Source of the DNA: Nymphaea colorata
Taxonomy: Eukaryota; Streptophyta; Magnoliopsida; Nymphaeales; Nymphaeaceae
Length of the DNA: 64,000 nt
Reading direction: 5' to 3'
NCBI RefSeq assembly: GCF_008831285.2
Contig: NC_045145.1
Coordinates: forward strand, 3,698,723 to 3,762,722
Positions 16,340 through 44,144 of this stretch are shown here, piece by piece (position 1 is the first letter of the stretch; the number at the start of each line of letters is the position of its first letter). A model generated the notes under the pieces. That model did no database searches. It worked only from the letters and a program-made list of their open reading frames with translations, and was not told the origin of the DNA. The translations under genes were made by a program, and so were the position numbers.

Positions 16340-17740
16340 GAAGCATATAAAATTATATGGAAGAAAGATAAACGAGCTTAAGCTGCACTTATTGTAATGT
16401 GTGAAAAATAAGAATAAAATAGACGCCATCTCTCGTCCTAAGCCAGCTTCTAGTGGGTGTGCGTCCTTATTCTCCTTCACCTGTTGTGGTGGTGGGAACC
16501 CCCACAATAATGTCAAGAAGAGAAACAATAATGTAAGGAGGAGAAAAACATGTACAGTAAGAGAAAAATACGTCAAGAGAGAAAACCAAGGTACCCATCC
16601 AGTCAGAAATTTTTTTCATGGACACAATTAGTTTACAAATGTTAAATGAGCTGCAACTTGGGTTTTCTAGAGCTACTTCATGTAACTGGACCCAAATCCA
16701 CTTAAATCAAACACTGAAATAAGGTTTTATAGACTGGGCTCTGCTTTGCCCCAGCGTCCAGCACCAATGGTAGCACCTATCACCACCCGCATGGTCACCC
16801 GGGGAAAGAAAAAGTGATTTTTTTTTTAATGACTCAGGAAAATTGTGCATTCTCATTTACACCACAATCGAACCAAAGAAAAGTTAACTAAGGCTCTAAT
16901 ACCAAGTATAGAACTCTTGATCGCAGACCATAGGTTTAGGACAAAAACGGGACCAATAAAGTTTGATTGTTAAAGTGTTTTCTTGTATAATCTGACTGTA
17001 TAGATATGATCTTTAATCATATTTTAATAAAAATCATACACTAAGTCGGTCATTTTTTGAGTTTAACATGTTCTTTTTTTAGGAATAAAAGACGAACGGC
17101 TCTCTTATGGAACCAAATGTTTTATATTGGAAAAGCAAGTGTTTTTCTTAAACACAACCTGAATCAAATCCGGTTTTATGTTAAATTAGTATTTACAAAC
17201 CCTGGCTGGAGGAATCCAATTTCACCTTGAGACAGAATTATTTTAATTTTGAAAAGTAAATCCGGAGAGAGACGGAAGGCATGCATGCTTTCCAGAGTTC
17301 TCTTCCCCCTCATTGTTGGCACGAAAAGGCCATTTGAACTTGATCATCTACTTCTGATATTCATGACGCTAGATTCAACTTTGGATCCGATCACCGACCA
17401 GATTCCTAGGCAGAATCCAACAGATATCTGGCTTCCACCGACAGCCAAATCTAATGACATTTGAAATGATCTTACTAGATTTTTGTGCTTTACATGTCCT
17501 AATCTTCATCTCACTCGACGCTCAACACGTCCAATACAAAAATAGCTAGCTTTGTTTCCAAGTTCTCAGACGCGCTTCAAACCGTTCGGAGGGCACACGA
17601 GAATACCAAACAAGCAAGATCGGTGGTTCTTTTATTTTAATTGAAGAAAATGTTTTTCTTTTCCTTTACGCCGACGATTTTCGGTTACTTTTTTTTCAGA
17701 CTGGATTTGCCAACTGCTGCAATCTGACTGAATCCAACGT
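16340..17740. other. Region upstream of UGT-B, no gene seen
   Basis: No supported coding sequence. A degenerate copia primer-binding site lies in reverse orientation at 16892-16903 (GGCTCTAATACC, the complement of GGTATTAGAGCC), with about 65 bp of similarity to the stretch around 27149. This marks an old LTR fragment. Confidence 0.5.
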
Positions 17741-17757
17741 CCAAATTTTTGAGATTG

Positions 17758-17766
17758 TATATATAG
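17758..17766 (+). promoter_or_regulatory. Probable TATA box of UGT-B
   Basis: TATATATAG, 76 bp upstream of the UGT-B ATG (17842), in a normal position for a plant core promoter with a short leader. Confidence 0.5.
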
Positions 17767-18058
17767 ATAAGTAGACAGCCTGCAAACGCGTCTCCACTCG
17801 GAAACTCACCAGAACTCTTGCTTCCAGGTCCAGGATCCACCATGAGCAGCAGTATTAAGCCGCATGTCCTTGTGATTCCCTTTCCATTACAAGGTCATAT
17901 CATGCCCTTAATGGAGCTCTCCCATCGCCTGGCCGGCCAGGGCTTCCCAGTTACCTTCGTCAACACCGAGCACATTCATGAGCGACTGATGGCAGCAGCA
18001 TACCATCGAAAGCCCTCTTCCGACGATTTCGCCGGAAAAATGAAGATGGTTGCCGTTC

Positions 18059-18063
18059 CTGAT
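18059..18063 (+). repeat. Target-site duplication, left copy (CTGAT)
   Basis: CTGAT occurs directly before the 5' LTR and again at 23043-23047 directly after the 3' LTR. Removing one copy restores the UGT reading ..VPDGWPSGDD... Confidence 0.92.
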
Positions 18064-18309
18064 TGTAGGATGACTAGCAGGATGGCTACCGAATCAGTTT
18101 GGATTTTGAAGATAAAATCTTCTTTATTAGTCAAGATATTGTTTCCAAATTTTGTTGTAACAAAGAAACCGTTGTAACTCCATATCCCTAAATTTTTGCT
18201 ACCGTGTATATTAGGATGAAAAGTTGTCAATAGCAATACATAGAAGTTACGATTCTTCCAATTGAGTCTCTTCTTCGTCTTCTTCCTTACTGTTATTGTT
18301 ATTTTCTCA
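18064..18309 (+). repeat. 5' LTR of the copia element
   Basis: 246 bp, starting TGTAGGATGACTAGC and ending TTTTCTCA. It differs from the 3' LTR by one substitution and a 6-bp extra unit (ATTGTT) near its end, so the insertion is young. Confidence 0.95.
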
Positions 18310-18361
18310 GTTTTGTGCCCTGTTTCTCATTCTGCTGTGCCCTGTTTTTTGTCCTGCTCTC

Positions 18362-21300
18362 ATGGCTACTGTGTCGGGTGTTCACAATAATGGTGATGAT
18401 CAAATTGAAGCCAACGCGTCACCCTTTCTCCTGCATCACTCGGATAATCCTGGTGCTATCCTTGTGACCAGTCCTTTAGCCGGTGACAACTATGCAACAT
18501 GGCAGAGGGTCATGAAGATGGCTTTAAGTGCAAAGAACAAATTTGGGTTCATTGATGGTTCCATTCCCAAACCTCCGTTAAACAGTCCAGACTACAAAGC
18601 TTGGATGCGCTGCAATGATTTGGTGCATTCATGGCTTCTCAACTCACTTTCAAAGGAAATCGCTAACAGCGTTATCTATGCCAATGAGGCTCGTGAGGTA
18701 TGGAATGACCTACAAGATCGTTTTTCTCAAGGTAATGCTTCCCGTATTTACCAATTGAGAAGATGGTTTCTGATCTACGACAAGAGCAATATTCCTTACC
18801 AAATTATTTTACTCGTCTAAAGACTTTATGGGATGAAATTGCTTCATATTCTACTGTTCCTACATGCTCTTGTGGTGCTTTTAAAGAGTTTAATTCCTGT
18901 CAAGATCGTGAGAAAGTGTATCAATTTTTTATGGGACTCAATGAATCGTATGGCAACATTAGAAGCCAGATTCTTGCCATAGATCCATTACCCAATATTA
19001 ACAAGGTTTACTCTCTTGTGCTGCAAGAGGAAACTCGGCGACTACTAGTTCCGCAGCTCTTGAGTTCTGAAAATACTGCTTTAGCAGTAAATTTGTTACC
19101 TTCTTATAACAAAAAATTTCTGCCAAGAGGACAGCAGTACATGAAGAACAGGCCACGTCCAAAATGTGACCACTGTGGTCAACTTGGGCATATCCAAGCA
19201 CGCTGCTATGCATTACATGGCTACCCGCCTAACCATCCAAAATCTAAAGCTTCATCTGAAATGGGTAAAGGCGGACACACTCAACATGGATCCTCGGCAA
19301 ATGTCACTACTGCTGCTATAGTTCTCTCTCAGTTGACTGAAGATCAACTCAGCAAATTAACGGCATGGCTTAGTGCTGATGACAAACCTGCTGCCGCAAA
19401 CGTCGCAGGTAAGCATATGCTCAATTCCTCCCATCATTTACCATGGATTATTGATACCGGAGCCTCAGACCATATGACTCCCCAACTTCACTTGATGACC
19501 AATGTCATTCCTCTACCCGAAGTTCGCCTTATTAATCTTCCAAATGGCCAACAACTTTCAGCTACTCATACAGGAACCATAGAACTCCAGCCGAACCTCA
19601 TACTTATAGATGTACTTTACATACCAGAATTTAGATACAATCTATTGTCAATCCCTAAACTCACCAAAACCACTGACTATGCTGCTGTTTTTCTCTCATC
19701 TTGTTGTCTCTTTCAGGACCGTTTGTCGAAGAGGCTGATTGGAGTGGGTAGCTTATGCGGCGGACTGTATCATCTACGATTACCGGCCAGTTCTCATGCT
19801 CTTTCTGTTACTTCCCTTAATAAATCTCATGTTTGGCATATGAGACTTGGACACCCGTCGTTTGACAAAACTCAATCTTTGAATTCTGATGTTCTTATTT
19901 CCAAGCATGAATTTCTATGTGATGCTTGTCATAAAGCTAAGTTCTCTCGCTTGCCCTTTTCTCATAGTAGTAGTAGAGCGAGTTTTCCATTTGCATTACT
20001 TCACTGCGATGTTTGGGGAGGATATGCCACGCCCTCACATACTGGAGCGCACTACTTCCTCACTATAGTTGATGATTTCTCTCGTGCAACTTGGGTCTTC
20101 TTGATGCGTTTTAAGTCTGAAACTTTTTCTTGTTTCACTCGGTTCCATGCTATGGTAGAAAACCAATTTCATACCAAAATTAAATGTCTTCGAAGTGACA
20201 ATGGTTCAGAATTTCTTGCAAATAATATGCAAGAATTTCTTTATATGCATGAGATCGAACACCAAACTTCATGTGTTGCGACACCGCAACAAAATGGAAG
20301 AGTTGAAAGAAAACATCGTCACTTACTTGAAGTCGCCCGAGCGCTTCGTTTTCATGCACACTTACCTATTAAGTTTTGGGGCGAATGTATTTTAACAGCC
20401 ACTTTCTTGATTAATCGTCTCCCATCCCCTATTTTGAATAATAAATCTCCTTTTGAACTCTTGTTTCATAAAACACCCATCTATGAAGATTTGCGTGTAT
20501 TTGGATGTCTATGTTATGCTCGAAATATGAGTGTACACCGAGATAAATTTACCACACGTGCATATAGATGCATTTTTGTAGGATATCCTTCAAATAAAAA
20601 AGGATATAAAGTCTATAATCTTGACTCCAAAGAAATTTTTATAAGTCGCGATGTGGTATTTTATGAAGACCGGTTCCCATTCCAATTTCAAAATGATGAT
20701 GGTTTGAACTCACGTGTGCTGCCAACACCACAAGAAGACTATATGAGTGAAGAAAGTGACTCTCCAATTGTAAGTGTGCCCGAGCCAGCTCCACCAATGT
20801 CGCCATCCATTCCACCTACTCATCTCGTTTCTACTGAACCAGTCAACCATTATAATTCTTCCTTTCATCCCAATCTGAACCCACCATACGAAAATCAAGC
20901 TGCCCAAGACACCCACCTTCATATCTCAATCAGTATGTGTGCTCAAACGTAATGGTATCAGATCCGCCGCCTAAGGATCCTCACTCCATGACGCCATCTT
21001 CAGGTACACGGTATCCCATTCAAAATTATCTTTACAATTCTAAGTTTTCTCCACAATACTTTGCATTTTTAACCTCTATTTTGAGTGATGCTGAACCTAC
21101 CTCGTATGCGGAAGCGGTGCAACATCAACACTGGCGCCAAGCTATGGCTGATGAGATCCATGCTCTCCAACAAAATACCACCTGGTCCCTTACTACCCTA
21201 CCTCCAAATAAAATTCCAATTGGTTGTCGTTGGGTATATAAAGTGAAACGGAGGTCTGATGGTACCATCTAACGCTACAAAGCCCGACTTGTAGCAAAAG

Positions 21301-22795
21301 GGTATACACAAATTGAGGGTATTGATTTTCATGAGACTTTTGCTCTAGTCGCAAAGCTTACTTCCATGAGGACTTTACTTGCGGTTGCTGCAACTCGTCA
21401 ATGGTCCCTATATCAAATGGACGTTAGTAATGCATTCATACAGAATATTCCAGTACGACAAACAGTCGTACTGGAATACTCCCCCTCACGAAGAAGACCT
21501 GGAGGAATGGTCATATAAACTTTTTCGTGCAGCTCCCCATGTATGAATGCATTACTAACGTCCATTTGATATAGGGACCATTGACGAGTTGCATTCATAC
21601 ATGGGGAGCTGCACGAAGAAGTTTATATGACCATTCCTCCAGGTCTTCTTCGTGAGGGGGAGTATTCCAGTACGACTGTTTGTCGCCTCCATAAGTCCTT
21701 GTACGGACTTAAACAATCACCACGTAACTGGTTTCACAAGCTCATGACTGCCCTTAAGGATGCTCATTTTATTCAATCCAATGCAGATTACACATTATTC
21801 ACTCGACACTCTGGAAATCAGTTTATTGTTATCCTAGTGTATGTGGATGATCTTATTATTACAGGAAATGATGAACAAGATATTTCTTCAATCAAGACCT
21901 TCTTACACTCCAGATTCCATATAAAAGATCTAGGAAATCTCAAGTATTTCCTAGGAATTGAGGTTGCTCGAGCGCCATCCGGGATATTTTTAAATCAAAG
22001 AAAGTATGCATTGGTGATTCTTTCTGACGCTGGTCTATTAGGAGCAAAACCAGCCGATTTTCCTATGGATCAAAAATTGAAACTAACTCCAGAAGAAGGT
22101 GAACCGATAAAGATCCAGCTATGTATCGAAGGTTAGTAGGGCGCTTGATCTATTTGACCATTACTCATCCAGAAATAACATATTCAGTTCATACGTTAAG
22201 TCAATTCATGCAATCACCACGACTTCCACATTATGAAGCAGCTCTTCGCATATTAAGATACTTAAAATCATCTCCTGGAAAAGGTATCTTTCTATCATCA
22301 TCTAGTGAAATGCAGTTAAGAGCATATTGTGATTCTGATTGGGCGAGTTGTCCTTCAAGTCGGAAATCAGTAAGTGGTTTTGTGGTTTTTCTCGATAAAA
22401 GTCCAATCTCATGAAAGTCAAAGAAGCAAACTACTGTAGCCAGATCATCCGCAGAAGCGGAATATCGAGCGATGGCTACTGCTGCATGCGAAATTGTATG
22501 GTTGAAGGCACTATTAAAGGATTTAGATGTACACCATCACAAACCAATAAGCCTATATTGTGACAATCGAGCAGCCTTGTATATCTCCAAAAATCCAGTT
22601 TTTCATGAACGAACAAAACATATAGAACTGGATTGTCACTTTGTTCGAGAGAAGGTTCAACAAAAAGTAATTCAACCTCAGCATGTATCCACGTCATTGC
22701 AGCTGGCTGATATTTTCACAAAACCATTGGGTAGGGATATGTTCCAAAGCTTGAAGGCCAAGTTGGGTGTCACAGATCTACACACTCCAACTTGA
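18362..22795 (+). pseudogene. Copia gag-pol, disabled
   Basis: The gag start is ATGGCTACTGTG at 18362. Domains in order: CCHC zinc knuckle CDHCGQLGHIQARC (about 19164-19205), protease DTGASDHM (about 19453), integrase HHCC (19831-19950) and catalytic core with DNGSEF (about 20200) and QQNGRVERKHRHL (about 20287), RT with YVDDLI (about 21839), RNase H (22318-22560). Lesions: a frameshift near 18757, a frameshift near 20940, a TAA at 21270 in place of a Glu codon, a 159-bp snap-back insertion (21442-21600) that adds another stop, a frameshift near 22105, and a TGA near 22413 in place of Trp. It cannot make a full polyprotein. Confidence 0.92.
21442..21600 (+). repeat. Inverted duplication inside the copia RT region
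   Basis: The 159-bp insert holds an inverted copy (21456-21592) of sequence that lies on both sides of it: 21390-21441 on the left and about 21593-21685 on the right. The arms differ by one base. It is bounded by a 10-bp direct repeat, GCATTCATAC (21432-21441 and 21591-21600). At its left end is a tight hairpin, TTCCAGTACGAC-aaaca-GTCGTACTGGAA (21447-21475). Confidence 0.93.
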
Positions 22796-22802
22796 GGGGG
22801 AG
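22792..22802 (+). other. Polypurine tract of the copia element
   Basis: TTGAGGGGGAG lies immediately before the 3' LTR TG and would prime plus-strand synthesis. The core TGAGGGGGAGT also occurs inside pol at 21653-21663. Confidence 0.8.
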
Positions 22803-23042
22803 TGTAGGATGACTAGCAGGATGGCTACCGAATCAGTTTGGATTTTGAAGATAAAATCTTCTTTATTAGTCAAGATATTGTTTCCAAATTTTGTTGTAAC
22901 AAAGAAACCGTTGTAACTCCATATCCCTAAATTCTTGCTACCGTGTATATTAGGATGAAAAGTTGTCAATAGCAATACATAGAAGTTACGATTCTTCCAA
23001 TTGAGTCTCTTCTTCGTCTTCTTCCTTACTGTTATTTTCTCA
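22803..23042 (+). repeat. 3' LTR of the copia element
   Basis: 240 bp, TG..CA, nearly identical to 18064-18309. Confidence 0.95.
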
Positions 23043-23337
23043 CTGATGGATGGCCTAGTGGGGATGACCGGAACAAGTTGGGCACGTTCTGCCATGTTAC
23101 GCTGAAGGAGATGCCGGGGCACCTGGAGAACCTGATTCTCGACATCAATCGCAGAGACGACCGGAAGATCACTTGCATCTTCCTTGGTGATCGCAGATGC
23201 GCATATGCCGTGGGCGCTCGAGGTAGCCGAGAAGCTAAGCATTAGGAGGGTGGCCTTCTATCCGGCATCTGCTGCTACCTTCTCAGTCATGGCTAGTATT
23301 CCCTGGCTTTTGGAAAAACAAGTCATAGATTCGAACG

Positions 23338-39250: not shown

Positions 39251-40970
39251 AGCAGCCACCATAGATATAGGTCTCACAACATGGTGTCCTTCTCTTCTTC
39301 TTCTTCTTTCAGCCCCTACTTTGGTCGTTCTATTGAAAAGAAAAGGTTATCAGACCTCCAGGTAATCAGACGCTCACGCGGCAAAATGGCGCCAGATTTC
39401 TCAACCGAGATGTGATAAAGAATGACCAACCGATGCAGAAACCAGAAGCGGTAGCAGCGCAAATCAGATCATCCGTGTGCTTAGATACCAAAAACGATCA
39501 TGAAACCAAAGGGAAGAAGACATTAACTCTTGTAGTTTCTTGGTCATCGATGATTTATGCGCAGGATTTTGTTAATCATTTGGCCAACATGATTTATTTC
39601 TTACCATTAAAGATCCGTTTTCTTTTAAGGAAGCCAGTGGAGCATAAAGTTTCTTTGATTGTAAACTTGGATCAGTGGCCAGCGGTGCGTCTGTTTCAGA
39701 CCATCGGATCATCTTGACTGTAAACTTGACGATGGGAAGCAAACGGGGAAAGCGAGAGAGAGAAAGATAGAGAAATGCTGGATGATCAATCCCTCCACTG
39801 TATATTCCAGGGTCCTTCGACCATGGGGTCTCCGGAATGCACAGGCGCAGAGCCGAGTTGCCTCACCATGATTCCGGTGGTCACCATGAATCCGGTGGTC
39901 TATAAACGCAGGAGAGAGAGCTGCACCAGAGTGGCAGAGCCACCATAGATATAGGTTTCACAACCTCCTTCTCCTCCTCCTCCTCTTCTTCTTTCTCAGC
40001 CCCTTCTTTGGTCATTCTATTGAAGAGAAAAGGTTATCCGACCACTCCAGGTAATCAGACGCTCACGCAGCCAAATGGCGCCAGATTTCTCAACCGAGAA
40101 GTGATAAAGAAAGACCAACCGATGCAGAAACCAGAAGCGGTAGCAGCGCAAATCAGATCCTCCATGTGCTTAGATACCAAGAACGTCATGAAACCAACGG
40201 GAAGAATATATCTACTCTCGTAGTTTCTTGGTTATCGATGATTTATGCGCATGATTTTGTTATTCATTTTGCCACCATGATTTTTTTCTTTCAATTAAAG
40301 ATCCCTTTTCTTTTACTGAAGTCGGTAGAGCATAAAGTTTCTTGGATTGTAAACTTGGATCAGTGGGCAGGGAGTGCGCCTGTTTCAGACCATCGGATCA
40401 TCTTGATTGTAAACTTGACGATGGGAAGCAAAAGGGAAAAGCGATCTCAGGAATGCTGGACGATCAATCCCTTCACTGTATATTCCAGGGTCCTTCGGCC
40501 ATGGGGTCTCAGGAATGCGCAGGCGTAGAGCCCGAGTTGCCTCACCATGATTCCGGTGGTCTGTAAACGCCGGACAGAGCTGCACCATGATTCCGATGGT
40601 CTGTATATTCTTGCGTTACCAGCAGTTCTTAAGGAGCATCATCTGTCGATGAAACAGCCATTTGAACCACAGCCCTGGTTGGGCAGGCGTCCGACTTAAG
40701 CAAAAACCATGACAAACACCGGCTGTAGATCAGACTCGTGCTGATGCAGAAGACACCACAAGTGGGCCGAATCCCGGCTCGCCACTCCGCTTGGTTGGAC
40801 TGGGGTCAGACTTTGGCTCAAGTTTGGCAGGAAGCTCTCCTTCATCTACAGCAGAACAGAAAGATGGTGCTTAGATACAATGAATTTCAGATGATATTGG
40901 TTAGATTCTTATGCTCCACTGTAACTTGTTTGGATCAGAGGACTTCATGGTTCCCATGCTTGGTTTAACA
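39251..40970 (+). pseudogene. Scrambled relic of the NAC-like gene
   Basis: Two tandem units of about 690 bp (39251-39940 and 39941-40600) each contain an antisense-oriented piece followed by a sense piece. The antisense pieces (about 39325-39770 and 40010-40440) resemble the + strand of 43480-43960, the start of NAC exon 2 plus the intron. The sense pieces (about 39800-39870 and 40490-40560) resemble the region coding AMGSPESVEPSF. After the second unit, 40620-40970 runs on in sense as the exon 2 end (KEHHL.., PWLG.., ..SSTAEQKD) and 3' flank. Frames are broken throughout. Confidence 0.75.
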
Positions 40971-42403
40971 ATCACCTGGTTGGTGTGTACATATGCTTCA
41001 TCTTTAAATGTTAGTGCCAAAATTAAGAAGTTTCATTTTGTTTCAAGTGATATATATATATATGTGTGTGTGTGTGTGTATATAGCGAAAAAGGGAGAGA
41101 TTGGTAAATACTTGACCATTTAGGCAAGACACAGCAACTAGACCTACCAAAAATAATTATTAAATCTTTTCTTGCAATCTAACCTTATGATATGACCTCA
41201 AGAGTGATTTAATGGGGAACATGTATTAAGTTAAGTCATTTTACATTTTAATCATGTTTTTTTAATAGTCAAAAAATGAATAGGCATTCTTATGGCTTCA
41301 ACTTTTTATAGTAGGAAAAATCAGCGTTTTTTTACAAAGATAACTGAATTAAAACATGATTACATTGGTTGCTGCTTATGAATACGTTAGGATGTTCATA
41401 ATTTGTTTATAATATTTTTAATATAAAATTGAGAAGTATGGTTTCATCTCTTACGTAGCCTAGTATCACACACGGACATGTATATATAGGGGTGAATTAG
41501 TTCAGTATGTACAAGCTAATAGCTTTATTTAACGGAAAAGCTGAACAACCAGATGGTGTTTGATAACTTCAGTTAAGGCTGATCTGAAATTCATGCTGCA
41601 TGAGTCTCGTTGTTTATAGTTTTGAACAAATAGTGGATCACATGGATCGTCACATTTGTATAATTGTGTTCATTTTGTATTTCCTAGTACTGTTATTCGA
41701 CAAAGGCTTACATATTTTTTCACAGATATTGTTAAATTGTTCATTTGCTTGTGCAAACGACATTTCAAACACAAAGGAAAAATATTAGTCATTTGTAGCT
41801 TTTACTAGAGGAAGACTTGATCAGGGTGCATTTGGAATTGATAAATAGTTAGTAGCCCATTAATGACCAGTTTGGATCTTAAATCTACAAATTTGAGAAT
41901 TCATGCAATCCACTATTTGCCGGATGCGGCATGAATCTCGGATCAGCATCATATCCGAGTCTGAGGCTATCAAACACGACCTGGTTGTTCCACTTTCATT
42001 AGAAGTTAGCAGCGATTTTACTTACTAAACTAATTTTGTTATTTAAATAGTTCAAGAATAATCTGATTATCCCGGCATATATTTTAATTTAAATGGTTCT
42101 CTCTCTCTCTCTCTCTCTTTCAATATATACATATAATTCGACAGGATTTGAAAATAAATGTTCTAACTTTTTGAGGGGATTGAAATAAGAGGCTTAATTG
42201 ACTGATTTATTGGCTGACTAATCCTGATTTAACGATCAAAAGAGTTTGGAAACTGTTGTTGAGGACGACGTGAGCTACCATTCAACAATCACAATATTAA
42301 GAAATCAGTTTATTATGCATGAGTTTATTTTCTCCCAAAAGTGTATCTTCTGAACCAAAAATTTTTGCCTTGGTTGACAGTGGGTTTCATGAAAAAAAAA
42401 ATC

Positions 42404-42446
<43 letters not shown>

Positions 42447-42590
42447 GAGCAGGATGACAATGATCATAAAGTGAATTCATGACTAGTAAAAGAAGGTGCT
42501 TGTCTGTAAATTGTGATGGCTTGAAACAAAATCAAACTTCTTTAATTTGGCTCTAACATCTCATGATGAAAAACAAGTAGATCGTTAAGC
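40971..42590. other. Intergenic between NAC relic and NAC gene
   Basis: No gene. Microsatellites are present at about 41050-41082 (AT then TG), 42098-42120 (CT) and 42405-42446 (AT then GT). Confidence 0.65.
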
Positions 42591-42678
42591 CAAGCATGGA
42601 AATCATGAAGTCCTCTGATCGAAACAAGTTGCACTGGAGCATAAGAGTCTAACCAATATCATCTGAAATTCATTGTAT

Positions 42679-44144
42679 CTAAGTATCATCTTTCTGTTCT
42701 GCTGTAGATGAAGTAGAGCTCCCTGCAAAACTTGTCCCCTTGGCTGACCCCATTTCAACCAAGTCGTGTGGCGAGCTTGGATTTGGCACACTTATGGTGC
42801 ACTCTGGATCATCACGAGTGTGCAGCCGAGGGTTTGTGTTGGTTTTACTCTTAGTCGGAGGCTGGCCCAACCAGGGCAGTGGTTCAAGCCGCAGGTCCGT
42901 CCACAGATGATGCTCCTTGATAACCGGTAATTCGGTGGCGCCGCCACACTCGCCGGCTGGTACAGCTCGGTCCGGCGTGTACGGGACACAGGACTCACGA
43001 GGCCGCCAGGCACCTGTTGTGTTCGTGCTGAAACTCGGTTCTACGCTCTCTGGAGAACCCATGGCCGAGGGCTCTGTCTCAATCTGCTCATCATAATCCT
43101 CCGCCGGATCTTTCCAGTCTAAAAGATCGTCCGACGTAATATCCGGCGAAGATATCGACTGCCCCGCATGACTTGGGGTTGCAGCACTTGCTTCCTGTTG
43201 GATTCCACCACCTTCCGCTTCATCGTCTTCCTGCTTTGCAGCTTCTTCTTCAAAAATCTTGCAGAGTACATAGTTATGGGGCGCGTTGTCCTCGATCGTC
43301 TTCTTGGCAGTGCTCGTCTCAGCATGTTGAGAATCAATGAGTCGGTATTCGTGCATGGTCCAGTTACGGTAGCGTCGGCTCCTTCTCTCGCCGATCTTGT
43401 GGCCTTGTTCGTCAACAATGTCTTCTTGGGGAGCGCTCATCATCCAAAAGCCGTCACCAACTGGTCGATCTGAGGGAATCGGCCCGCTCCCCGGTGGTCT
43501 ATCAATTGGAGAGAAGAAGTACCAGACCTCCTTCTGATTGGGTGTTTTCACTGTAATCAAACGCTTACACATCAACGTGCGAATTTCCATTGCTTAGATA
43601 TCAAGAACGACGAACAGATGCAGAAATCAACCAGAAAATGTAGCTGTGTAGAACTGTTTATTAGGCGTTAGATGTCAAGAACGGTGAAATTAAACCATTG
43701 GCGCCGGAGAAGAGAATGAATTTCTTGTTATCAATGGATTAAGCAAGCGAATTCGTTTATTTTGCCGTGATTTGTTACAACTAATTAACATCAGTCTTCT
43801 TTGCAACGAAGTCAGTGGAGCATGAAGATTCTTCGAATCGACTAACTCAATGACAATTCAGAGAAAGTACAGGTTTACAAAGCATGTTTTATCCGTCTTG
43901 CCTAACTTGATGACCATGGTAAGCAAATTAGTTAACTTAGAGAGTGAGAGGGAGAACCTCGAATGAAGGTATCTGGATCGATGGAGAACATGTCGACGGT
44001 GGGGATGAGGTCGCCGTACTCGGAGTGCAGGCCGTCTGGATCATACACTTTCTTCCGGAGGTAGTAAATCAAGAGACGATCTGCATCGTCGAAGTCGAAC
44101 CTTGCTACCCTTTTTGTTTTGCGGGGCTGCCTTGGTTTCCCCAT
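42679..44144 (-). CDS. Divergent NAC-domain protein, two exons
   Basis: NAC proteins are plant transcription factors. Exon 1 is 44144-43958 and exon 2 43550-42679, with GT..AG borders (GAG|GTTCTC and TTACAG|TG) and a phase-1 junction giving ..TFIRV-KTPNQKEVWYFF. The total is 1059 nt, 352 residues. The NAC fold is traceable at residues 13-162: DADRLLIYYLRKKV (A), LIPTVDMFSIDP (B), VWYFFSPIDR (C), NWTMHEYRL (D) and NYVLCKIFEE (E). The main DNA-contact motif WKATG is replaced by WMMSA (98-102), and the N-terminal GFRFHPTDEE motif is poorly kept. The C-terminus is acidic and Ser/Pro-rich, as in activation tails. The exon 1 ATG is 44144; the reading frame is open upstream only via GTG. A broken relative lies at 39251-40970. 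Confidence 0.82.

What the first reader, a model, noticed from the sequence alone, without database searches (positions are those of the whole stretch)
21432..21685. Snap-back (template-switch) inversion inside a young copia element
A 159-bp insert contains an inverted copy of the sequence on both of its sides, giving a forward-reverse-forward zigzag. It has a 10-bp direct repeat (GCATTCATAC) at the switch points and a 12-bp hairpin at the turn. Its length is a multiple of three, but it brings a stop into RT. This pattern fits reverse transcriptase switching strands during cDNA synthesis rather than a later genomic event. An assembly chimera must also be considered.
Basis: partly seen in the sequence, partly recalled or inferred. 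Interest (0 to 1): 0.72.

Follow-up and report, generated by a model that had tools for sequence, protein, structure and literature searches.

The report
Inverted stutter inside a plant retrotransposon
One young copy of a plant jumping gene carries a 159-base insert, found in none of its close relatives, that was made by copying its own neighbouring sequence backwards, most likely by a copying enzyme that changed template several times beside a second, internal copy of the element's DNA start signal.

Summary
The zigzag is real as sequence: 159 nt inserted in the RT domain of a young Ty1/copia element (18064-23042; LTRs differ at 1 of 233 sites) that splits a glycosyltransferase-like gene. Its core is a 138-nt inverted segment (21456-21593) whose reverse complement runs uninterrupted across the insertion point. 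The host genome is held. Of 13 siblings found, 12 are insert-free there; the other has the site deleted. A 27-nt pattern across one junction occurs once in the genome (up to 3 mismatches). The event is therefore private to this copy among those found. R differs from its source arms at 1 of 150 sites: compatible with LTR age, but the order cannot be read. Two anomalies favour reverse transcription: this copy lacks the primer-binding site, and the turn's perfect arm starts exactly at the 3' edge of an internal copy of the element's polypurine tract (random placement 0.001, noticed afterwards). Neither is decisive; host template switching after insertion is the main rival. An assembly chimera is unlikely: the copies differ by substitutions, not indels. 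New variant of a known kind.

The parts
18064..23042 (+). Ty1/copia LTR retrotransposon copy carrying the zigzag; target-site duplication CTGAT at 18059-18063 and 23043-23047, inside a UDP-glycosyltransferase-like gene (gene name from recalled motif)
   Evidence: LTRs TG...CA, TSD, Pfam gag/rve/RVT_2 matches
18064..18309 (+). 5' LTR (246 nt); carries a 6-nt tandem duplication near its end that the 3' LTR lacks, and no primer-binding site follows it
22803..23042 (+). 3' LTR (240 nt); 1 substitution in 233 aligned sites against the 5' LTR
18303..18310 (+). junction where the primer-binding site and leader (two TTTCTCA repeats 57 nt apart in siblings) are reduced to one repeat
   Evidence: the five siblings measured carry TGGTATCAGAGC right after the LTR
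21389..21442 (+). left forward arm F1, source of the left half of R
   Evidence: 54/54 inverted match
21443..21601 (.). the 159-nt private insert (equivalently 21431-21589)
   Evidence: 12 of 13 siblings without it, 1 deleted here
21443..21445 (+). 3-nt filler at the first switch (2 of 3 letters would match templated copying)
   Evidence: the differing letter is in none of the 12 siblings but in one of 20 distant relatives, L081
21446..21459 (+). short forward arm of the turn hairpin, perfect copy of 21663-21676; starts exactly after the internal polypurine tract
21456..21593 (-). inverted segment R, 138 nt; its reverse complement reads straight across the insertion point
21431..21442 (+). 12-bp direct repeat TGCATTCATACA, copy 1
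21590..21601 (+). 12-bp direct repeat TGCATTCATACA, copy 2; its first four bases TGCA are the palindromic switch point shared with the end of R
21590..21685 (+). right forward arm F2, source of the right half of R
   Evidence: 95/96
21653..21662 (+). internal copy of the polypurine tract (TGAGGGGGAG), candidate central PPT; inverted copy at 21479-21488 within R
   Evidence: same 11-mer (with the following T) as the 3' PPT; 28 of 34 copies keep the 11-mer exactly
22793..22802 (+). 3' polypurine tract next to the 3' LTR

Best explanation
A growing DNA strand changed template about three times during one replication of this element, most likely during the reverse transcription that produced this insertion. 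Shown: the product is forward - (10-13 nt forward stub) - 138 nt reverse - forward; the reverse stretch was copied from an insert-free template; the product is in none of the 13 siblings found. Inferred path, read in the minus direction: the strand reached TGCA (21590) and switched through that palindrome onto a template of opposite polarity. It copied 138 nt through the internal polypurine tract to ...TTGTCG. There its GTCG end paired with CGAC five bases upstream (a pre-existing weak hairpin) and copied back 10 nt to the edge of the polypurine tract. It then jumped, with little or no homology, back to its original template 12 nt before its departure point. A reverse-transcribing particle supplies single-stranded templates of both polarities (recalled knowledge; two co-packaged RNAs are inferred in print for ONSEN), which the '4 before 1' geometry needs. 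The opposite direction of synthesis gives the same product and cannot be told apart. Consequences: the insert brings a stop into the RT domain, and any transcript would carry a ~96-bp near-perfect stem.
For: Uninterrupted reverse copy and microhomology at two switches; pre-existing CGAC/GTCG hairpin, -3.3 kcal/mol, z -2.6, 6 of 200 shuffles as good; 12 of 13 siblings insert-free, the 13th deleted there; 27-nt junction pattern once in 408 Mb with up to 3 mismatches; young copy, LTR 1/233 against 0 to 15 differences in the 11 siblings that could be dated; R-F divergence 1/150, not different from LTRs; the differing letters of R and of the stub are absent from all 12 siblings aligned; primer-binding site missing in this copy only among the 11 copies aligned, a lesion that could not have been inherited through normal tRNA priming (recalled RT biology); a breakpoint exactly at the edge of a second polypurine tract, 0.001 by random placement, 0.008 within 3 nt.
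Against: No feature excludes a host polymerase: great-ape genomes show events with point 4 before point 1 that are attributed to genomic template switching (PMC7954356, section 8 read). The missing primer-binding site could be a later deletion between 7-bp repeats. The polypurine-edge coincidence was noticed after the fact and its exactness rests on reading GAA as filler; read as templated, the arm starts 3 nt inside the tract. The stub's differing letter occurs in one distant relative (L081). No switch between subfamilies was seen at the zigzag: 25 of 31 diagnostic sites carry one subfamily's allele, on both sides, and none lies between 21399 and 22252.
Confidence: 0.52

Rival explanations
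1. Host DNA polymerases made the zigzag after integration, by fork stalling and template switching or microhomology-mediated break-induced replication at this locus.
For: By the convention of the four-point model the switch points here fall in the order 3-4-1-2 (my label), and events with 4 before 1 are reported in ape genomes. The longest reverse fragment in that gold set is 128 nt, close to the 138 here. Break-induced replication is proposed for microinversions flanked by short inverted repeats (PMC8755829, passages). R-F divergence fits an age similar to or less than the insertion.
Against: Needs a helix opened for the return switch. Does not explain why the arm ends at the polypurine edge or why the primer-binding site is missing as well.
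Confidence: 0.28
2. Inherited: the zigzag arose in an earlier transposition and the parent copy is not in this assembly.
For: The window copy has 31 private substitutions in 4073 internal sites against six siblings, which suggests that its direct parent is not among them.
Against: None of the 13 siblings found carries it; R-F divergence is as low as the LTR divergence.
Confidence: 0.12
3. Assembly or read chimera (fold-back read, consensus error).
For: The assembly has consensus indel errors: two near-identical siblings differ by 20 single-base indels and 0 substitutions in about 6.2 kb. No allelic contig was found to check against.
Against: R differs from its source arms by a substitution and no indel, the opposite of that error profile; the stub's one difference, if it is templated, is a substitution too; both would be C:G to T:A. 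Many reads longer than 138 nt would have to share the fault (inference).
Confidence: 0.06
4. Insertion of a small fold-back transposon with a 12-bp target duplication.
For: The insert is bounded by a 12-bp direct repeat and is nearly all inverted repeat.
Against: Apart from 3 nt and one substitution every letter of the insert is a copy of its own two flanks, and the junction pattern occurs nowhere else in the genome.
Confidence: 0.01

Closest known systems
Short-range template-switch events, four-point model (Walker et al. 2021, PMC7954356; section 8 and passages read)
   Same: Forward-reverse-forward product, one long templated insert, point 4 before point 1 (order 3-4-1-2 by my reading of their convention; that string is not in their text)
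   Different: Here inside a young LTR retrotransposon; reverse fragment of 138 nt against a maximum of 128 and median of 12 in their gold set; an extra snap-back stub of 10-13 nt at one turn, so three switches rather than two
Template-switching complexes of LTR retrotransposons (Sabot and Schulman 2007, PMC1950507; passages read)
   Different: There two parent elements are fused into one complex insertion; the term search found no word beginning 'inver' in that paper
Inversions in defective HIV-1 proviruses (review PMC9238239; passages read)
   Same: Inverted stretch inside an integrated reverse-transcribed element
   Different: The passages seen describe no zigzag with both flanks kept
Recombination between co-packaged ONSEN RNAs in Arabidopsis (PMC5668417; passages read)
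   Same: Frequent recombination during reverse transcription in a plant LTR retrotransposon (copia type: recalled)
   Different: Exchanges between family members; the term search found no word beginning 'inver' in the main text
Ty1 PPT2 and the HIV central polypurine tract (Heyman 1995 seen only as a reference in PMC2829016; PMC10802722 and PMC3185511 passages)
   Same: A second plus-strand start site inside the element
   Different: For Ty1 the cited title reports initiation at PPT2 within pol; here there is only sequence identity and retention
LINE-1 twin priming (recalled)
   Same: Reverse transcriptase product with an inverted segment
   Different: Needs target-primed reverse transcription and leaves a 5' inversion, not an internal zigzag in an LTR element

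Membership tests
Short-range template-switch mutation (four-point model) | Reverse-complement fragment copied from the immediate neighbourhood, flanked by two collinear fragments | tested here: met
   138-nt R between F1 and F2
Short-range template-switch mutation (four-point model) | Ancestral, insert-free state known | tested here: met
   12 of 13 siblings without the insert, 1 deleted
Short-range template-switch mutation (four-point model) | Fully described by one reverse fragment (four points) | tested here: not met
   an extra 10-13 nt forward stub at the CGAC turn needs one more switch
Ty1/copia LTR retrotransposon | LTRs, 5-bp TSD, gag-integrase-RVT_2 order | tested here: met
Ty1/copia LTR retrotransposon | tRNA primer-binding site after the 5' LTR | tested here: not met
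   present in the 10 siblings aligned, missing in this copy
Reverse-transcription-born inversion | Present at the moment of integration | tested here: inconclusive
   R-F 1/150 against LTR 1/235
Reverse-transcription-born inversion | Seen in unintegrated cDNA or VLP DNA | not testable with these tools
   no reads or cDNA available
Central polypurine tract | Same sequence as the 3' PPT inside pol | tested here: met
   identical 11-mer, expected 0.0003 per element on that strand, 0.0016 on both
Central polypurine tract | Nucleotide-level conservation beyond the protein | tested here: inconclusive
   TGAGGGGGAGTAT ranks 1 of 425 windows over 34 copies (0.986, next 0.982), but 54 of 142 degenerate codons have an invariant third base
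Central polypurine tract | Plus strands start there | not testable with these tools
   needs primer extension on VLP DNA

The most novel reading that the evidence does not exclude
The zigzag is a fossil of a mis-resolved central plus-strand discontinuity. This plant copia family starts its plus strand at a second, central polypurine tract in the RT domain. In this copy the upstream plus strand ran 23 nt past that start, and its end folded onto the displaced downstream strand. It copied that strand to its 5' end, which is the polypurine edge, added three untemplated bases (the GAA filler), and jumped. If so, integrated copies hold a readable record of where plus strands begin and end in an element that is hard to study biochemically. 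The near-perfect hairpin it left could also feed small-RNA silencing of the whole family.
Probability: 0.17. Interest if true: 0.7.

Novelty: new variant of a known kind. Interest (0 to 1): 0.42.

Why it matters
Zigzag insertions are usually credited to chromosomal replication. A private one in a young LTR element, beside a second polypurine tract and with the primer-binding site skipped, suggests that reverse transcription may be another source. It also gives a concrete test of whether plant copia elements use a central polypurine tract. The near-perfect stem it creates shows how one error could turn a family member into a source of double-stranded RNA against its kin.

Tried and rejected
Relatives in other collections: a viral-contig scan found no relative (2 stretches matched a pattern, none confirmed) and a plasmid search found nothing; one query was in the wrong frame. 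Recombination between subfamilies at the zigzag: no allele switch found; no marker of that split lies from 21399 to 22252. Dating the event by private mutations inside the duplicated zone: none of pre-event age seen in the alignment, uninformative. Allelic contig to check the assembly: only the locus itself and paralogues of 81% or less among the 40 candidates scored of 118. Excess indels near the tract in siblings: gaps are scattered, though the C14 sibling has a 23-nt gap that starts 35 nt downstream of the tract, and the C8 sibling lacks the whole stretch. Strand-biased C>T (14 against 3 G>A) among the private substitutions of this copy: noted, not explained. A codon-level test of the polypurine tract across the genome did not complete. 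Literature: searches for inverted or fold-back template switching in LTR retrotransposons (8, 2 and 6 papers listed, all that matched) and for a central polypurine tract in plant copia (20 of 118 listed; 10 of 18; 1) show, by title and start of abstract and by the passages opened, no paper that describes either; only this library was searched, and most listed papers were not opened.

Full report
WHAT IS THERE. The finding is correct in its main points. Within the RT region of an LTR retrotransposon, the left arm 21389-21442 and the right arm 21590-21685 are both found again, inverted and fused, in one 138-nt segment R at 21456-21593. The match is 54/54 on the left and 95/96 on the right; 12 letters of R are compared with both arms. 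R's reverse complement runs without a break across the point where the two forward arms are now separated, so its template had no insert. The insert is 159 nt. It duplicates 12 bp (TGCATTCATACA) at its ends. At one turn R and the right arm share the palindrome TGCA. At the other turn a short forward stub (21443-21455) leads into R through CGAC, giving a perfect 14-bp stem with a 5-nt loop. The stub copies 21660-21672 with one difference or, read more strictly, copies 21663-21672 exactly with a 3-nt filler before it.

THE HOST ELEMENT. It runs from 18064 to 23042, with LTRs of 246 and 240 nt, TSD CTGAT, a polypurine tract before the 3' LTR, and Pfam matches to copia gag, integrase core and RVT_2. 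The left piece of RT matches profile positions 33-90 and the right piece 85-242, so the insert splits one domain. The 5' part of a UDP-glycosyltransferase-like protein is interrupted by the element (name from recalled motif, not from a family search). The element is broken in several ways beyond the zigzag: two other in-frame stops, and three frame changes in gag, before RT and after RT. The frame changes go with single-base gaps seen against 5, 5 and 6 of six siblings and may be base-calling errors, see below. Its LTRs differ at 1 of 233 sites. Of the 11 siblings with two measurable LTRs, only one has fewer differences (0/232), and the others range from 2/232 to 15/232; two of the 13 siblings were not dated. 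At a recalled rate of 1.3e-8 the age is about 0.17 Myr, with wide error.

SIBLINGS. The window lies in a 408-Mb assembly. A search with the left RT flank gave 12 siblings at 92-98% and then a drop to below 80% (40 of 191 candidates scored). A search with the right flank gave the same 12 and part of a thirteenth (40 of 80 scored). In 11 of 12 the two hits abut to the base; in the twelfth they are 2 nt apart because the first two query letters are outside its match. The 138-nt R, read in reverse, aligns along 136-138 nt to all 12, and along 126 nt to two more distant relatives. The thirteenth copy, found by its LTRs (27 LTR hits, 14 copies with the window's own), has lost the whole stretch. Nowhere in the genome, at up to 3 mismatches, is there a second copy of the 27-nt junction. 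The event belongs to this copy alone among those found.

AGE OF THE EVENT. R differs from its source arms at 1 of 150 comparisons, the LTRs at 1 of 235 in the test (Fisher p = 1.0). Adding the stub makes it 2 of 164 as I entered it (p = 0.57; the stub with its mismatch is 17 sites, so 167 would be exact). Neither differing letter occurs in any of the 12 siblings aligned; the stub's occurs in one of 20 distant relatives, L081. Both would be C:G to T:A. Event and integration are of similar age within wide error, and their order cannot be read. The allele at the single subfamily marker inside R equals that of the left arm. Over the element 25 of 31 diagnostic sites follow one subfamily, on both sides of the zigzag, so a switch between different family members is neither shown nor excluded.

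IS IT AN ARTEFACT? Two siblings about 12 kb apart on one chromosome differ by 20 single-base indels and no substitution in about 6.2 kb of overlapping pieces. That looks like long-read consensus error, so the assembly is not clean. But its errors are indels, whereas R differs from its source arms by a substitution only. A fold-back read would be expected to show the reverse. No allelic contig was found, and reads are not held.

TWO FURTHER ANOMALIES. First, of 11 copies aligned at the 5' LTR edge, this copy alone lacks the primer-binding site. In five siblings measured, TGGTATCAGAGC follows the LTR directly, and two TTTCTCA repeats lie 57 nt apart; in the window one repeat and everything between are gone, and a 6-nt duplication sits in the 5' LTR only. 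A copy without this site cannot prime its own reverse transcription in the usual way (recalled biology), so this lesion dates from the last round or later. It could be a second-strand transfer that used TTTCTCA instead of the primer-binding site, or a later slippage deletion. Second, the 11-mer TGAGGGGGAGT at the 3' LTR edge occurs once more on that strand of the element, in the RT region at 21653 (its inverted copy is in R); its expected number on that strand is 0.0003, on both 0.0016. In 34 copies of 73-100% identity over the stretch compared, 28 keep the 11-mer exactly, and the window TGAGGGGGAGTAT is the most conserved of 425 windows of 13 nt (0.986; the next are 0.982, mean column 0.877), although invariant third bases are common there (54 of 142 degenerate codons), so selection beyond the protein is not proven. 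The perfect stub arm of the zigzag starts at exactly the base that follows this tract. Random placement of the same five breakpoints hits that base with probability 0.001, comes within 3 nt with 0.008, and spans the tract with 0.03 (that script took 4,493 nt, insert included, as the internal length; without it the length is 4,334). This was noticed after the fact.

MECHANISM. By the convention of the four-point model the order of the switch points is 3-4-1-2: the reverse fragment reaches past both flanks. Walker et al. [quoted passage not shown] A reverse-transcribing particle offers separate single strands of both polarities (recalled), and co-packaged RNAs recombine often in a plant LTR element (PMC5668417, passages). 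This, the second anomaly and the missing primer-binding site make reverse transcription the better account (0.52), with host template switching after integration as main rival (0.28; see also PMC8755829, passages). Template switching in plant LTR elements has been proposed before for fused elements (PMC1950507, passages), and inversions are known in HIV proviruses (PMC9238239, passages).

CONSEQUENCE. As RNA, the region folds into a stem of roughly 96 bp with 38 nt between the main arms (-207.5 kcal/mol against a shuffled mean of -81.6). If transcribed, it could be diced into small RNAs matching the family. No small-RNA data were available; this is inference.

VERDICT. Real as sequence, private among the copies found, and a template-switch product. 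It is a new variant of a known kind of mutation rather than a new system. The candidate central polypurine tract is the more testable lead.

Noticed in passing
18303-18310: This copy lacks the tRNA primer-binding site found after the 5' LTR in the 10 siblings aligned; the loss lies between two TTTCTCA repeats, and a 6-nt duplication is present in the 5' LTR only.
   Followed up: yes
21653-21662 and L009-L022, L062-L081: Second copy of the polypurine tract inside the RT region, exact in 28 of 34 copies down to 73% identity: a candidate central polypurine tract.
   Followed up: partly
L016, L017 (also L030/L031, L042/L043, L054/L055): Two siblings about 12 kb apart on one chromosome, with like flanks, differ by 20 single-base indels and no substitution: assembly consensus errors or a false tandem duplication.
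   Followed up: partly
L059-L061: A further sibling lacks the RT stretch equivalent to about 21148-21757, spanning the polypurine tract.
   Followed up: partly
18309-22802: Private substitutions of this copy are strand-biased: 14 C>T against 3 G>A; sibling C1 shows 9 to 1, C2a 7 to 3, C12 3 to 10, and three others are balanced.
   Followed up: no
17700-18063 and 23043-23300: A UDP-glycosyltransferase-like gene (recalled motif) is split by the element; related copies of 81% identity lie at contig C8 positions 3697624 (just left of the window) and 3729067 (window about 30345), a local gene family.
   Followed up: no
40625-40981 and 42572-42924: Large diverged inverted repeat pair (251 nt at 85% and 93 nt at 77%) about 1.6-2.1 kb apart.
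   Followed up: no
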